The notes beneath the pieces are model-generated. The model was not told where the DNA came from. It was given only the letters and a program-made list of their open reading frames with translations, and did not search any database. A DNA stretch of 64,000 bases from NCBI RefSeq assembly GCF_014651915.1, contig NZ_BMXU01000001.1:1-64000 (forward strand), given 5' to 3'. This stretch comes from Parvularcula lutaonensis. GTDB lineage: Bacteria > Pseudomonadota > Alphaproteobacteria > Caulobacterales > Parvularculaceae. The translations under genes and the position numbers were made by a program. Shown piece after piece: positions 56,887 through 64,000 of this stretch (positions within the stretch are counted from its first letter, which is position 1; each line of letters begins with the position of its first letter).

Positions 56887-59229
56887 TTACAGCGGCTGGC
56901 GGCGCCAGGCGTCGAGACGGGCGCGAACCGCGGCAAGTTCCGTCGGGCTGAGGCGTCCTTCGATCTCTGCTGCCTGTTCCGCAGCTCGGGTGTCACCCTG
57001 CCTCGCGGCAAGGCGGTACCAGTAGAGTGCCTCTGCTGCATCCCGCCTGTCCTCGGGGAGGTAGGGATTTCTCGGGTCATAGATCGACCCGAGATTGTAC
57101 ATGGATGCTGCAAGCCCTGCATTCGCCGAGCGCGTGAAGCCGAGGATCGCGCGGTTGGTGTCCACGGGTCCGCCTATGCCCTGAATGTCGAGATAAGCGA
57201 CCCGATGCACGGCGCGGATATGCCCGCGGCGTGCGGCCTCTTCGAACCAGTCACGGGCGAGAACGCCGTTCTGGGGCACCCCGTCACCCGCGAGATAGAG
57301 TTCACCGAGTTCGTGCATCGCGACGACAGAGCCTGCTTCCGCGGCCTCGGTCATCAGGGCGATGGCGGCCGACGTTTCCTCGGGAGTCGCGGCGGTGGCA
57401 AGAAGCTTCTTAGCCTCCGCAAAGAGCGCGTCAGGATCCTCTTCGGCGGGTGCCGGCTCCGTCGCAGGTAGCGCGCGCGCTTCTGCGGGCAGTGGATCGA
57501 CAATCACCGGGGTGTTGTCCGACGGGGTGCTGAGCCGGATGGCCGTGATGCCGATAGCCACCATGCACACCGCAATCAGGATCCATCCGAGTGCCGAATT
57601 GTTTTCGACCGGTTCGGCCACCATCCGGCGAAGGAAGGCAGAGAGGCGTTCGGTCCATGTCTCCGGTTCTGAGAAGTAATTATCGTCGGCAAAGGCGGTT
57701 GTTTGCCGCTGGCTTTCCTCAGTGAACGGATTGTCAAGCGAGGACGGGACATGCCACTCGTCAGGCGCGTCGTAGGTGGGACGGTGATAGGCTTCACGCC
57801 CTACCTCCGGCTCGGTCGGGGCAGGTTCGACCGGATCGGGCTGTGCTTGCGCCGGTTCGTCACGAAGCGAGAAACCCTCCGTGAACGCAGGGGTCGCGGG
57901 AGCTGTCGCAACGGGGGCGGGTTCGTCGCCGGGTGACGTGTTCGGATAGCCGGGGACCCCGAGGTCGAGCGGATCGCGCAGCCCGTCGTCTGGAGCGGGC
58001 TCGGGCACGACCGTGACCGCTTCCGGGGACCGCGGCTTGGCCGTGAAATTCAGCGGATCGTCGAAGACGCGGTCGAACTCATCCTCCGGGTCCGGCGTGT
58101 CGTTCCCCTTGGTGAAGTCATCGACATAAGCCTCTTGAGGCAAGGGGGGTGCAGCGAAGGGAACGCTGGCCGTGGTCTCGGTGGACCGACCCTCGAGGCG
58201 GTCGACCACGGCATCGAAAGCGCCCTTGAGTTGGCCAAAGCGGCAGTCTGCTTCTTCGGCGGCGGTCTTGATACGCTTGACCGGTGCATCCTCGCCGGAG
58301 ACGAGGCTGTGGTCTTCCATCTCCCTGCGGAGGGTTTCGAGGGACTGCGCCACGCGGCTGATACCCTCAGCGCTGCGCTCCTCGCCAGCCTCGATTTTCT
58401 TGGAAAGCTGGCTCACCGAACTTTCCAGGGTGCGGATCTGGTCCGATGTGCGCTTGATCTCGCTGCCAAGGAGCTGGAGGCGCTGGCTCGTGCGTTCGAT
58501 GAAGCTCTCGTCGCGGGACTCGGCAGCCTCGCGGGCGGCATCGAGGGCCGCCTGGACCTGGGCGTCGGTTTCCGTGAGCCGGTCGGTGGTCCGATCGATG
58601 GCTTCGAGCAACTGGTTGATCTCGCCGCGCAGAGCTTCATCTTCAGCCGAGAGACGGGACTGGAGTTCCTCGATCAGTCCTTCATTGCGAGCAAGACGCT
58701 TTTCCGTATCCTCGCGGGAGCTTTCGACCTGCTCGACGAGGGTCGAGAGAGCCTTTTCGAGGGCGACGAGACTTTTGACCCAGGAGTTTTTCTCCGCCGC
58801 GCCTTCAAGACGATCGAGACGTTCGGCTATCCCCTCAGCGTCCGACAGGCCTTTTGCTTCTTTCTCAAGGCGCTTCACGCGCTCGAAGACGGTCTCGAGG
58901 CCCTTGTTCAGGCCGCCCATCGCCTCACGGGAAGTAACCTCGCTGGTGCGGAGAGATTTTTCCGCAGCCTTCAGCCGCTCATTGAGACGGTTGAGCGTAT
59001 CGACGACGGCACGCAGCTGGTCCGTGGTGACTCCCGAGACTACTTTTTCTGAGCCGGCGTGACCGGCATCCGATTCCGTGCCCGTGGCGTCGATGCCCTT
59101 TTCACGGATCATCTCGGTGATGAACTCGCCCAGGGTCTGGCCACGCTTGCGCGCCAGCTCCTTCGCCACCGAGCGGGCATCGGGGTCGATGCCTTTGACG
59201 CTCCAGGGGACATTGGACTTCGCGCTCAT
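56887..59229 (-). CDS. PodJ-like polarity protein with coiled coil and Sel1 repeats
   Basis: The protein is 780 residues from the Met at 59229. The first 45 residues (PWSVKGIDPDARSVAKELAR then RGQTLGEFITEMI) match the N-terminal motif of PodJ/polar organiser proteins. A long coiled coil follows (about 70-345), then a Pro/Asp-rich linker (350-540), one membrane helix (546-567, LGWILIAVCMVAIG) and three to four Sel1 repeats (about 600-755). The C-terminal peptidoglycan-binding domain of Caulobacter PodJ is absent. It is likely to be a pole-localised scaffold with the repeats in the periplasm. Confidence 0.75.
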   Translation of the reverse strand: MSAKSNVPWSVKGIDPDARSVAKELARKRGQTLGEFITEMIREKGIDATGTESDAGHAGSEKVVSGVTTDQLRAVVDTLNRLNERLKAAEKSLRTSEVTSREAMGGLNKGLETVFERVKRLEKEAKGLSDAEGIAERLDRLEGAAEKNSWVKSLVALEKALSTLVEQVESSREDTEKRLARNEGLIEELQSRLSAEDEALRGEINQLLEAIDRTTDRLTETDAQVQAALDAAREAAESRDESFIERTSQRLQLLGSEIKRTSDQIRTLESSVSQLSKKIEAGEERSAEGISRVAQSLETLRREMEDHSLVSGEDAPVKRIKTAAEEADCRFGQLKGAFDAVVDRLEGRSTETTASVPFAAPPLPQEAYVDDFTKGNDTPDPEDEFDRVFDDPLNFTAKPRSPEAVTVVPEPAPDDGLRDPLDLGVPGYPNTSPGDEPAPVATAPATPAFTEGFSLRDEPAQAQPDPVEPAPTEPEVGREAYHRPTYDAPDEWHVPSSLDNPFTEESQRQTTAFADDNYFSEPETWTERLSAFLRRMVAEPVENNSALGWILIAVCMVAIGITAIRLSTPSDNTPVIVDPLPAEARALPATEPAPAEEDPDALFAEAKKLLATAATPEETSAAIALMTEAAEAGSVVAMHELGELYLAGDGVPQNGVLARDWFEEAARRGHIRAVHRVAYLDIQGIGGPVDTNRAILGFTRSANAGLAASMYNLGSIYDPRNPYLPEDRRDAAEALYWYRLAARQGDTRAAEQAAEIEGRLSPTELAAVRARLDAWRRQPL

Positions 59230-59521
59230 GCGACCCTTTTCGGTTTGCGGGGGCGAAACAGCCAACGCCCTGCCACGGCTAGATAAGTTTCCCGATGTTT
59301 ACGGCGTTAAGCTGATTTCAACCCTTGGTGAAGATGCCTGCTTAACAAACTCCTAAGAAGATGTAGCCGATTCAACCAAGGCGTGCGCAGCATGCAGCAC
59401 GCTCCTGCAATATTTTGCGACGCTAAGCGTCTTTGCCTTCCGGCCTCAGGCGGGATAGGAGCAGGGCAACTTGTGAAAACGGCGCCAAGCTTAGCACTGC
59501 GGCGCCCATTGGAGGACCGAT

Positions 59522-61333: not shown

Positions 61334-61362
61334 AAAGCCCGGGCCGAAGCCCGGGCTTTTTC
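61334..61362 (+). terminator. Strong intrinsic terminator (possibly bidirectional)
   Basis: AAAGCCCGGG (61334-61343) pairs with CCCGGGCTTT (61350-61359), a perfect 10-bp stem with a 6-base loop, followed by T-rich sequence on the plus strand and by TTTCTCGTTTTTT on the minus strand. It could end both the acyl-CoA dehydrogenase and the flagellin-like gene. Confidence 0.9.
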
Positions 61363-61440: not shown

Positions 61441-63039
61441 TTATTCGTCGTCAGCCTCTTCGGCTTCGGTCGCCACGGGCTCTTGAACGGGTGCGCTCTT
61501 CTTGCCGTTGAAGAGCTCGAGAATGCCCGGGCGAGCTTCCTCGCCGGAAAAGACGCGGTTGATCTTTTCAATCCGCGACAGGGCCAGCGCAGCGGCGCGG
61601 GCGGCGGAATCGTCGTCAAGATTTTCGTCGATCTTGGTACGGATTGAGCTGTCAAGACGCTCGGTCAGGTCATCGAAAAAGTTACCGCGACGAGCGAGGG
61701 TGGCGCTGAAGTTGTCAAGCTGGGTGTTGACCCGGTCGATCCGTGCACGGGCCTCGTTGGTCAGGGCTTTCGCAGTCTCTGTGTCACCCTGGGCAAGGGC
61801 AATGCCAACCTTTTCGAGAAGGTCGGTGAAACCACCGCTCTTGAGCTTGGCTTCTTCGGAGACGACTTCGACATCGACAACGCGTTCCAAGGTCTCCGTG
61901 GTGTAGCCCACGACGGCGTTGAGCTGCTCTTCGGTCAGCGTCTCAAGGCGCTCAGTGATTTTTTCGATCCGCTCACCGATTACCTCCTGGCGTTCTTGAA
62001 CAAGTTCAAGACGTTCGGTCAGGAAGGTTTCGCGTTCCTGGATACGTTCCAAGCGGCTCGTGATCCGCTGCTCGCGGACCTCGACGCGGTCCAGGCGCTT
62101 CTCGAGACGTTCGAGTTTGTCGAGCGAGATGGTGAGGCCAGCTTTCTGGGCCTCCTTCTCGGCACGATCAAAAGCCTTCTGAGCAGCTTTGGTGTTGCCC
62201 TTCGCAGCAAGTTCCTTGGCCTTGCTACGAGTGTCCAGGGCTTTCGCCAGCTCTTTCTGGTCTTTGGCATCGGTCGGGCGAGCGCCGCTATCCACAAGGC
62301 GGTCGGTGATCCGCTCCTCGATCCGGTCGAGGCGCTCGAGCCGGCTCGTCAGGCGCTCCTCGCGAGCCGTGAGCTTTTCGAGGCGCGAGGAGATCCGCTC
62401 TTCGCGGTTCTCCAAACGAACCTGGCGTTCGACCAGCTTCTCGATCCGCGCGGTGAGACGCTCCTCACGGGTGATCGGTGTAGAGACGACTTCAGTGATT
62501 GTCTGAGAAACCGTCTCGGTTTTCGTTGCAGCCTCGGTCGGGGACAGACCAACGGCTTCGAAATTCAGCTGGCGGAAGTCGAACTTGCCACCATTTGCAT
62601 CAAAGCCGAGCGTTACCGTCAGGGTCTCGCCTTCTTTGAGAAGGTTCGTGCCACCGAAGCCCGCTGCTGCGACGATCTTGGCGGTGTCGCGCTCGAGGCT
62701 GTCGAGCTGGCCGGAGAAGGCCGTGCCCGGAGCACCGGCTTCGACGGCACCGATTACGCTGTCGACGCGATCAAGGACGCTGCCGAGGGAGTCCGTGCCC
62801 ACTTTGGCGGCGGCGATCGAAGCGTTAGCCTTGCCAAGGCTTTCGCCCAGCGTGCGGAAGATCATGCTTTCGCTCTTCACCGCACTCGAGATCGAGAAGA
62901 AGCTCGACGAGGCCGAGATGCTGTTGTTCTTGAACGAGCCACCGACCACAGCCCCGAAAGGCTGGATATCCTGACCCTTGGAGCGGCGGAGCGCAAAGAG
63001 CGCGGACTTCGCCGAGATATCACTGACAAGCGCTGACAT
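61441..63039 (-). CDS. Flagellin-like protein with a large coiled-coil insert
   Basis: The protein is 532 residues from the Met at 63039, which has AAGGGA 8 bases upstream. Residues 1-100 resemble a flagellin N-terminus: SALVSDISAKSALFALRR, then FSISSAVKSES, TLGESLGKANASIAAAKVGTDSLGSVLDRV. The C-terminus (about 426-510) resembles the flagellin D1/D0 end: RIDRVNTQLDNFSATL, NFFDDLTERLDSSI, LDDDSAARAAALALSRIEKI and GILELF. Between them, instead of D2/D3, lie coiled coils (190-248, 303-369) with 14-residue periods such as REERLTARIEKLVE. The tail is acidic. No other flagellar gene is in the window. Filament formation is untested; the homology itself is inferred by eye. Confidence 0.65.
   Translation of the reverse strand: MSALVSDISAKSALFALRRSKGQDIQPFGAVVGGSFKNNSISASSSFFSISSAVKSESMIFRTLGESLGKANASIAAAKVGTDSLGSVLDRVDSVIGAVEAGAPGTAFSGQLDSLERDTAKIVAAAGFGGTNLLKEGETLTVTLGFDANGGKFDFRQLNFEAVGLSPTEAATKTETVSQTITEVVSTPITREERLTARIEKLVERQVRLENREERISSRLEKLTAREERLTSRLERLDRIEERITDRLVDSGARPTDAKDQKELAKALDTRSKAKELAAKGNTKAAQKAFDRAEKEAQKAGLTISLDKLERLEKRLDRVEVREQRITSRLERIQERETFLTERLELVQERQEVIGERIEKITERLETLTEEQLNAVVGYTTETLERVVDVEVVSEEAKLKSGGFTDLLEKVGIALAQGDTETAKALTNEARARIDRVNTQLDNFSATLARRGNFFDDLTERLDSSIRTKIDENLDDDSAARAAALALSRIEKINRVFSGEEARPGILELFNGKKSAPVQEPVATEAEEADDE
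61933..62472 (-). repeat. 14-residue-period coiled-coil coding repeats
   Basis: This stretch encodes residues 190-369 of the flagellin-like protein. Within it, REERLTARIEKLVE, REERISSRLEKLTA and REERLTSRLERLDR recur at 14-residue steps, and REQRITSRLERIQE, RETFLTERLELVQE and RQEVIGERIEKITE do so in the second block. A basic/acidic linker (DSGARPTDAKDQKELAKA) separates the two blocks. The units imply tandem duplication. Confidence 0.7.
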
Positions 63040-63045
63040 ACCCAT

Positions 63046-63290
63046 ATTCCCTTACCTATGCGCCTCAGCGCACTGTCGAACATCAGTCAAAAATCCTAAT
63101 AGATCGTATCTTATGAAAAGGCGGATCAAAAAAAGTGCGGCAAGTATGGGAACAGTTCGTTATGCTTAAATAAACTTTACCATATAAAATGATATATGGT
63201 GGGACTTTTCCTTATGGTTACTTGCTGAGAAACCATGTCGCGCGATCGCGCGCTGGCAGCTAGGAATCTTGAAAAGTCTGGAGACACGCC
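63046..63290. promoter_or_regulatory. AT-rich divergent promoter region with an 8-bp inverted repeat
   Basis: These 245 bases lie between the divergent starts of the flagellin-like gene and the Tat-signal SDR. They are much more AT-rich than the rest of the window. ACCATATA (63179-63186) and TATATGGT (63193-63200) form a perfect 8-bp inverted repeat with a 6-base loop, a plausible operator. No sigma-54 TGGCAC-N5-TTGC element was found by eye. Confidence 0.6.
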
Positions 63291-64000
63291 ATGTCCATGC
63301 CCCTCGATCGCCGCCAGATGCTGGCTGGAACCGCCCTTGCTGCCGGTTTGGCCGGGACCGGTGCCTTCGCTTCCCAGTCGACGCAGACGGGTCCCGACCT
63401 CTCCGGCAAGTCGATCCTCATCACCGGGACCTCGTCGGGCTTTGGCCGCCTGGGGGCGGAGCACTACGCCCGGCTGGGAGCGAAGGTCTTTGCAACCATG
63501 CGCAACATCCCTCGGCCAGAGGCGGAAGAGCTGCGCCAGCTAGCCTCTGACGAGGGGTACGACCTTCACGTGATCGAGATTGATGTCACCGATGACGCGC
63601 AGGTCGACGCAGGGGTCAAGAAAGCCCTCGGGATGAACGAAGGCAGGCTCGACGTCCTCGTCAACAACGCGGGCATCTCGAACGCCGGGGCGATCGAGAT
63701 GCAGGACATGGAGCAGACGACTCTGCTCTTCGACACGAATGTCTATGGTCCCCACCGCATGGCGCGGGCGGTGCTGCCGGCGATGCGGGCGCAGGGTAGC
63801 GGGCAGATCTTTCAGGTCTCATCCCAGCTTGGCCGGGTGATCGCGCCTGCCTACGGGCAATACTCGCCCACGAAGTTCGCTCTCGAAGCCATGAGCGAGC
63901 AGATGGCCTATGAACTTGTGCCCCACGGTATCGAGGTGACGATCATCGAGCCGGGCGGGTATCCCACGAAGATCTGGGAGAATGCGAGCCGCCAGACTGA
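63291..64000 (+). CDS. SDR oxidoreductase with a twin-arginine signal (partial)
   Basis: The gene runs off the right edge; 236 codons are visible. The ATG at 63291 has GGAGA 6 bases upstream. The N-terminus MSMPLDRRQMLAGTALAAGLAG resembles a Tat signal peptide, with two Arg before a short hydrophobic helix (GTALAAGLAGTGAFA). The SDR core follows: SILITGTSSGFGRLGAEHY, LVNNAGISNAG, the catalytic Ser in QVSSQLGRV, and Tyr-Lys in YSPTK. Export of a cofactor-dependent SDR would require folding before transport, which the Tat route allows. The substrate is unknown. Confidence 0.8.
   Translation, partial: MSMPLDRRQMLAGTALAAGLAGTGAFASQSTQTGPDLSGKSILITGTSSGFGRLGAEHYARLGAKVFATMRNIPRPEAEELRQLASDEGYDLHVIEIDVTDDAQVDAGVKKALGMNEGRLDVLVNNAGISNAGAIEMQDMEQTTLLFDTNVYGPHRMARAVLPAMRAQGSGQIFQVSSQLGRVIAPAYGQYSPTKFALEAMSEQMAYELVPHGIEVTIIEPGGYPTKIWENASRQT

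What the first reader, a model, noticed from the sequence alone, without database searches (positions are those of the whole stretch)
61441..63039. Flagellin-like protein whose central domains are replaced by 14-residue-period coiled coils
The ends resemble flagellin D0/D1 (start motif, then the conserved helix; a C-terminus with the LDDDSAA and GILELF pattern), but the hypervariable middle is an Arg/Glu-rich coiled coil with two-heptad units. The protein is about 530 residues against roughly 270-500 for most flagellins, with an acidic tail. It lies away from other flagellar genes in the window. It could be a non-motility filament, an adhesive or stalk-like fibre, or a flagellin with altered surface. 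A strong 10-bp terminator and AT-rich promoter frame it.
Basis: partly seen in the sequence, partly recalled or inferred. Interest (0 to 1): 0.78.

Follow-up and report, generated by a model that had tools for sequence, protein, structure and literature searches.

The report
Flagellin relative with coiled-coil arm
In a few marine Parvularcula bacteria, a relative of the protein that builds the flagellum carries a long coiled-coil arm of fixed length and a rebuilt inner end, so it may decorate the flagellum or act at a special spot instead of building its shaft.

Summary
The gene is window 61441-63045, minus strand, 534 aa. Its ends are homologous to flagellin, although no Pfam flagellin model reaches its cut-off. 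A profile of four orthologues finds solved flagellins (E 8e-9). HMMs of ten flagellins from the carrier genomes hit both ends well above controls. The middle is a predicted antiparallel coiled-coil hairpin on a strand base. It has no gap column over 177 residues in four orthologues at 33-40% identity. The "14-residue" period is mainly the heptad.

D0, the most conserved part of the neighbouring flagellins, is remodelled here and followed by an acidic tail. The gene belongs to a flagellin-SDR-coiled-coil cassette in 4 of 10 Parvularcula genomes. Those four have 7-11 Flagellin_N matches, FlgL included, against 1-3 in the others. The next flagellin starts just past the window edge.

Best reading: an exported, minor, flagellin-derived protein with a roughly 9-nm arm, working with domain-bearing "decorated" flagellins. 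Export, assembly and function are inferred. Rivals: secreted FlaC-like protein, FljJ-like regulator, tip or junction part.

The parts
61441..63045 (-). coiled-coil flagellin-family gene, 534 aa (alternative start Met3 at 63039)
   Evidence: full-length orthologues in 3 of 9 congeners
62914..63039 (-). D0 N-terminal segment (residues 3-44), remodelled
   Evidence: alignment, identity and motif counts; pLDDT below 50
62557..62913 (-). D1 N-terminal part (residues 45-163): helices 45-102 and 107-127, beta hairpin 141-163
   Evidence: flagellin N HMM match; PDB flagellin match; models, low confidence before about residue 57
62470..62514 (-). base strand 1 of the insert (residues 178-192)
   Evidence: DSSP of the models
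62290..62469 (-). coiled-coil arm 1 (residues 193-252)
   Evidence: pLDDT block means 84-97; heptad test
62125..62289 (-). helical tip of the arm (residues 253-307; helices 260-281 and 285-301)
   Evidence: models; no gap column in 4 orthologues
61939..62124 (-). coiled-coil arm 2 (residues 308-369)
   Evidence: models; heptad test
61867..61914 (-). base strand 2 of the insert (residues 378-393)
   Evidence: DSSP of the models
61594..61830 (-). D1 C-terminal part (residues 406-484)
   Evidence: flagellin C HMM match over residues 422-485; model confidence falls to about 50 after residue 460
61507..61593 (-). D0 C-terminal segment (residues 485-513) ending in PGILELF
   Evidence: conserved within the four orthologues; not aligned with the flagellin HMM in this protein, though it is in the G009 orthologue
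61444..61506 (-). acidic tail beyond the usual flagellin end
   Evidence: 22-37 residues after GILxLF, net charge -5 to -10 in the four orthologues
61334..61359 (-). intrinsic terminator between the convergent acyl-CoA dehydrogenase and this gene
63091..63112 (-). upstream element conserved in 3 of 4 orthologues, possible promoter or operator
63291..64000 (+). SDR oxidoreductase with a twin-arginine-like leader (read by eye), divergent neighbour in the same cassette (runs past the window)

Best explanation
It is a diverged paralogue of the genus's 'decorated' flagellins. D1 is kept. The outer domain is replaced by an antiparallel coiled-coil hairpin of about 60 residues per arm (about 9 nm, inferred from helix length) with a small helical tip on a two-strand base. 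D0 is remodelled and followed by an acidic tail. Most likely it leaves the cell through one of the two flagellar export systems and occupies few, special sites on the flagellum, not the bulk of the shaft. There the arm projects outward and acts together with flagellins carrying carbohydrate-binding-like or calcium-binding inserts in surface contact. Shown here: homology, conserved arm length, altered D0, cassette, co-occurrence. Inferred: export, placement, outward projection, adhesion role.
For: Homology of both ends with controls, and the PDB flagellin match. Profiles of 12 'decorated' flagellins score best at both ends (38.9-63.0 bits N, 23.5-27.3 C), above main-filament (15.8-29.3 N, at most 14.4 C), lateral-type (23.0-42.3 N, at most 6.0 C) and FlgL (at most 1.4) profiles; the one exception is G001, whose N score is 38.9 against 32.1 lateral-type. 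In the tree a starred branch (100/98) sets these four and 15 other flagellins, the decorated ones among them, apart from 22 main-filament and lateral-type ones (long-branch caveat). Models show D1-like helices plus a hairpin with pLDDT block means 84-97. No gap column in 177 residues of arms and tip in four orthologues. D0 N-segment identity is 0.32 among the four, against 0.66 among four neighbouring flagellins, while the D1 N-part is similar (0.52 against 0.57). 35 of 36 flagellins end one residue after the last LF/LY, against a 22-37 residue tail here. The flagellin-SDR-coiled-coil cassette stands next to the acyl-CoA dehydrogenase in all four carriers. Co-occurrence with many Flagellin_N matches, 4 of 4 carriers with 7-11, 6 of 6 others with 1-3, and with one FlhA type, 86-91% identical to the own copy.
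Against: No Pfam flagellin match above cut-off. D0 is not modelled with confidence, the end of D1 is weak, and pTM is 0.37-0.38. Foldseek's flagellin matches are weak (E 0.056 and worse) among generic coiled coils, and the only match with E below 0.001 is a chemoreceptor model. The upstream element is not shared with the flagellins, so co-regulation is not shown. The exact sister in the tree is unsupported (87/44) and the stem is very long. The four carriers may reflect one event. Nothing here shows export or assembly.
Confidence: 0.45

Rival explanations
1. A secreted flagellin-like protein that leaves through the flagellar export gate and is not part of the filament, as described for Campylobacter FlaC.
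For: D0 is remodelled and an acidic tail follows the usual end, which should disturb packing of the core (inference). A precedent for a secreted, non-motility flagellin-like protein exists (passages of PMC4863622).
Against: D0 is not simply decayed: A12, S14, A15, L16 and P506, G507, I508, L509, L511, F512 are invariant in four orthologues. The arm of fixed length looks like a structural device (inference).
Confidence: 0.2
2. A regulatory flagellin that controls synthesis of other flagellins until it is exported, as FljJ does through FlbT in Caulobacter.
For: FlbT is found in 10 of 10 Parvularcula genomes. FljJ cannot form a filament alone (passages of PMC7591256). The gene has its own upstream element in 3 of 4 orthologues.
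Against: FljJ is described as 49% identical to the other flagellins; here identity to four neighbouring flagellins is 18-19%. A long coiled coil is not needed for such a role (inference). FlbT is also present in the six genomes without the gene.
Confidence: 0.15
3. A structural part of the filament end: a tip or cap in a lineage without a recognised FliD, or a hook-filament junction adaptor.
For: FliD_C is not found in 10 of 10 Parvularcula genomes (FliD_N was not searched). An altered D0 with a tail in the lumen would fit an end position (inference).
Against: Six Parvularcula genomes with flagellar genes show no full-length copy. A family member with the same FlhA type at 74% identity (G065, 97% complete) shows none either. 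FlgL profiles do not match it. The one FliD_C match (G001 orthologue, E 0.00099, below cut-off) lies in the coiled coil, residues 313-348.
Confidence: 0.12
4. A non-flagellar fibre or stalk protein that borrowed flagellin termini.
For: The insert (residues 178-393) makes up about 40% of the chain.
Against: It co-occurs with flagellins and stands in a flagellin cassette.
Confidence: 0.05

Closest known systems
Flagellin (FliC/Flj; e.g. S. meliloti flagellin A 7sn9, Caulobacter FljL 9cem)
   Same: homologous N-terminus and D1 C-terminus; insert at the place of the outer domains
   Different: D0 remodelled, acidic tail, outer domain is a coiled-coil hairpin, no Pfam match above cut-off
Flagellinolysin (flagellin with a metallopeptidase insert; PMC5595980, abstract start and passages seen)
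   Same: a foreign domain replaces the hypervariable middle
   Different: the insert here is a coiled coil, not an enzyme; flagellinolysins are reported to assemble, which is unknown here
Campylobacter FlaC (PMC4863622, passages seen)
   Same: flagellin-like protein that may not serve motility
   Different: no coiled-coil arm is mentioned in the passages seen
Caulobacter FljJ (PMC7591256, passages seen)
   Same: divergent flagellin paralogue in the same class that does not form filaments alone
   Different: FljJ is much closer to its paralogues (49% identity stated) and lies next to the hook in the filament
Decorated flagellins of the carrier genomes (RTX, LamG-like, GH115_C-like inserts)
   Same: nearest by profile score; some stand in the same cassette
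   Different: the eight scanned pass Pfam; they keep the usual D0 motif and end

Membership tests
Flagellin | N-terminal D0/D1 sequence homology | tested here: met
   42-64 bits against control best 9.2; PDB flagellins E 8e-9
Flagellin | C-terminal D1 homology | tested here: met
   24-33 bits against control best 11.2
Flagellin | Pfam Flagellin_N / Flagellin_C above cut-off | tested here: not met
   one orthologue of four has a sub-threshold Flagellin_N match, E 0.015
Flagellin | usual D0: (I/V/L)xTG motif and end one residue after the last LF/LY | tested here: not met
   motif in 35 of 36 flagellins and 1 of 4 orthologues; end rule 35 of 36 flagellins, 0 of 4 orthologues
Flagellin | D0/D1 helical bundle fold | tested here: inconclusive
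   helices modelled; pLDDT block means 68-89 for residues 61-140 and 83-87 for 411-450, about 50-60 after 460 and mostly below 50 in D0; weak Foldseek flagellin matches
Flagellin | export by the flagellar system and polymerisation | not testable with these tools
   needs experiment
FlgL (HAP3) | FlgL N and C profile match | tested here: not met
   at most 1.4 bits with profiles of 4 FlgL
FliD cap | FliD_C domain | tested here: not met
   0 of 10 genomes; one of four orthologues matches below cut-off (E 0.00099) in its coiled coil
FljJ regulatory flagellin | specific binding to FlbT | not testable with these tools
   FlbT genes present

The most novel reading that the evidence does not exclude
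A flagellin has been converted into a new kind of axial part: a fixed-length coiled-coil spoke whose rebuilt D0 and acidic tail sit in the export channel at one end of the filament, and so cap, plug or mark the filament in a lineage in which no FliD was found.
Probability: 0.1. Interest if true: 0.8.

Novelty: new variant of a known kind. Interest (0 to 1): 0.45.

Why it matters
In flagellins D0 is the conserved core and the outer domain varies. Here D1 and the arm length are kept while D0 changes, the reverse of the usual pattern. That makes it a natural test of which parts of a flagellin are needed for export, for assembly and for contact with surfaces. If exported, it would add a rigid coiled-coil arm to the known functional flagellin inserts.

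Tried and rejected
Rejected: FlgL or FliD membership; ordinary flagellin with only a changed outer domain (D0 differs); a chance coiled coil with flagellin-like ends (controls); a true 14-residue repeat as opposed to heptads; a gene required by every flagellum with this FlhA type (G065 has that type at 74% and no full-length copy).

Led nowhere: single-sequence PDB search; the search for related loci with one sequence; sigma-54 scan upstream, no orthologue better than p about 0.11; sigma-70 scan, none. The upstream element was built from three of the four orthologues, so their own matches are circular; the fourth (G001) does not show it. Foldseek on the whole models gives mostly generic coiled coils. 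The listings of the paper searches on coiled-coil or unusual flagellins and on Parvularcula flagellins showed no matching report (in some only 8 of 38 and 8 of 43 papers were listed).

Limits: searches scored at most three candidates per genome. In one search only 25 of 48 families were shown, so the two orthologues not covered elsewhere were scanned again, which brought out the weak Flagellin_N match. Flagellin_N matches include FlgL genes, at least one in each carrier. The four profile sets compared used 8 main-filament, 12 lateral-type, 12 decorated and 4 FlgL sequences; 4 of the 36 flagellins were in no set. One search left out 4 of 45 rows, and one search left out 5 of 41 flagellins, as incomplete or holding unread letters. 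The tree's bootstrap had not settled. G001 is in 320 contigs and some of its flagellins are fragments.

Full report
What is there. The minus-strand ORF 61441-63045 encodes 534 residues. Orthologues with 49, 48 and 43% identity occur in 3 of 9 other genomes of the same genus. Named records identify them as Parvularcula maris, P. mediterranea and a Parvularculaceae MAG; the link to handles G003, G009 and G001 rests on equal contig lengths. That G005 is P. bermudensis is recalled from its contig length, not from a call. A profile of the four finds a full-length copy in 4 of 62 family genomes, 4 of 398 order genomes and 1 of 385 class genomes, the window's own. The last two calls scored at most three candidates per genome, at E up to 1e-20.

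Flagellin ancestry. No Pfam flagellin model reaches its cut-off in the four proteins; one orthologue, G003, has a sub-threshold Flagellin_N match at E 0.015. Closer models do match. An HMM of the first 150 residues of 10 flagellins from the carrier genomes, six of them from the cassettes, scores 64.4, 53.8, 52.7 and 42.2 bits on the four proteins; an HMM of the last 100 residues scores 32.6, 25.1, 24.7 and 23.9. In 400 copies with shuffled termini and 116 other window ORFs the best scores were 9.2 and 11.2. In reverse, the profile of the four finds flagellins of its own genome and family at E 2e-19 to 1e-10, and 7 flagellin sequences among 16 matches in the PDB, led by S. meliloti flagellin A at 8.1e-9 and including Caulobacter FljL, FljN, FljK and FljM. 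Unrelated chains (reovirus sigma-1, Cas13a and others) also match there, mostly over the coiled-coil part. The C-terminal match stops at residues 485 (window protein) and 481 (G003), at about the start of D0, but reaches 490 in G001 and 504, the profile's end, in G009.

Which flagellins it is nearest to. The window's genome has eight Flagellin_N matches, one of which is FlgL, two FlhA genes and two FlbT genes. Profiles of 'decorated' flagellins score highest at both ends, ahead of the main-filament, lateral-type and FlgL profiles. The tree makes the four one group (100/100) with a very long stem. A starred branch (100/98) sets them and 15 other flagellins, the decorated ones among them, apart from 22 others; the exact sister is unsupported.

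The arm. Both models (4 and 8 sequences) show D1-like helices 45-102, 107-127 and 422-475, and between them strand 178/179-192, helix 193-252, two short helices 260-301, helix 308-369 and strand 378-392/393. Arm and tip pLDDT block means are 84-97. pTM is only 0.37-0.38, D0 is mostly below 50 and residues after 460 are near 50-60. Hydrophobic residues follow a 3.5 period in both arms of all four proteins (at most 1 of 5000 shuffles). The 177 residues of arms and tip hold no gap column in the four proteins, at 33-40% mean identity. Constant length with free sequence suggests that length matters (inference).

D0. In four neighbouring flagellins with a carbohydrate-binding-like insert, D0 is the most conserved part (0.66 and 0.71). 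In this family the D0 N-segment is 0.32 with six gap columns, while D1 stays at 0.52 and 0.48. The (I/V/L)xTG motif is in 35 of 36 flagellins and 1 of 4 of these proteins; 35 of 36 flagellins end one residue after the last LF/LY, whereas these carry 22-37 further residues with net charge -5 to -10. The D0 C-segment is conserved inside the family (0.53; P, G, I, L, L and F of PGILxLF invariant), so D0 is rebuilt and still under constraint. From general knowledge of filament structure the flagellin C-terminus lines the central channel, so a tail there should limit bulk assembly (inference).

Surroundings. In the carriers the order is OmpA-like lipoprotein, one or two flagellins, SDR, this gene, acyl-CoA dehydrogenase (in G001 the contig ends before the lipoprotein). 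In five of the six non-carriers the lipoprotein, dehydrogenase and Sel1 gene lie within one stretch of about 15 kb with no match above 60 bits to the flagellin, the SDR or this gene; in the sixth (G008) the lipoprotein is not in the stretch. Carriers have 8, 11, 7 and 9 Flagellin_N matches (G000, G001, G003, G009), non-carriers 1-3; FlgL genes are counted in these. Carriers share one FlhA type, 86-91% identical to the own copy; a family member outside the genus (G065) has it at 74% without a full-length copy of this gene. Four carriers in one genus may be one evolutionary event, so these correlations are not independent evidence.

Control region. A 22-bp element begins 68, 72 and 80 bases before the chosen ATG in three of four orthologues (30.6-35.7 bits); the best score before any of the other 41 flagellins is 10.8, and G001's own is 6.3 (the model was built from those three). 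It suggests regulation of its own (inference).

How it may work. The evidence fits a protein exported by a flagellar system that keeps the D1 docking surface, projects a rigid arm and occupies few sites. A secreted FlaC-like role, a FljJ-like regulatory role and an end-part role remain open. Passages of PMC4863622, PMC7591256, PMC5595980 and PMC8306008 were seen; PMC7018530 gave no passage; other papers were seen only in search listings. The listings showed no report of a coiled-coil flagellin insert; they cover open-licence PMC papers only and two of them were cut to eight rows.

Noticed in passing
L026:4258-6000 (+), G009: A flagellin whose middle carries RTX calcium-binding repeats (HemolysinCabind E 5e-15) between Pfam flagellin N and C domains.
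   Followed up: partly
L002:1498-3036 and L006:1510-3051, own genome: Flagellins of about 512 aa with similar enlarged middles; one has a weak concanavalin/LamG-like match (Laminin_G_3 E 0.005, below cut-off).
   Followed up: partly
L029:9295-10713 (contig 64294-65712) and L027:8739-10226: Flagellins next to the coiled-coil gene with a carbohydrate-binding-like insert (GH115_C E 1.2e-5 in the second only).
   Followed up: partly
window 56887-59265 (-): Coiled-coil-rich protein with Sel1 repeats; the layout recalls PodJ polarity proteins (recalled, not tested).
   Followed up: no
window 63291-64000 (+): SDR with a twin-arginine-like leader, present in all four cassettes; role unknown.
   Followed up: partly
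G000 C2:329547-331610 and C1:1129462-1131438: Two FlhA genes, so two flagellar export systems; one type is limited in the genus to the four carriers.
   Followed up: partly
10 Parvularcula genomes: No FliD_C match in 10 of 10 (FliD_N not searched), so the filament cap of this genus is not recognised.
   Followed up: partly
L077:1074-2456 (-), G009: A very diverged flagellin that lacks the ISTG-like motif and the LF end.
   Followed up: no
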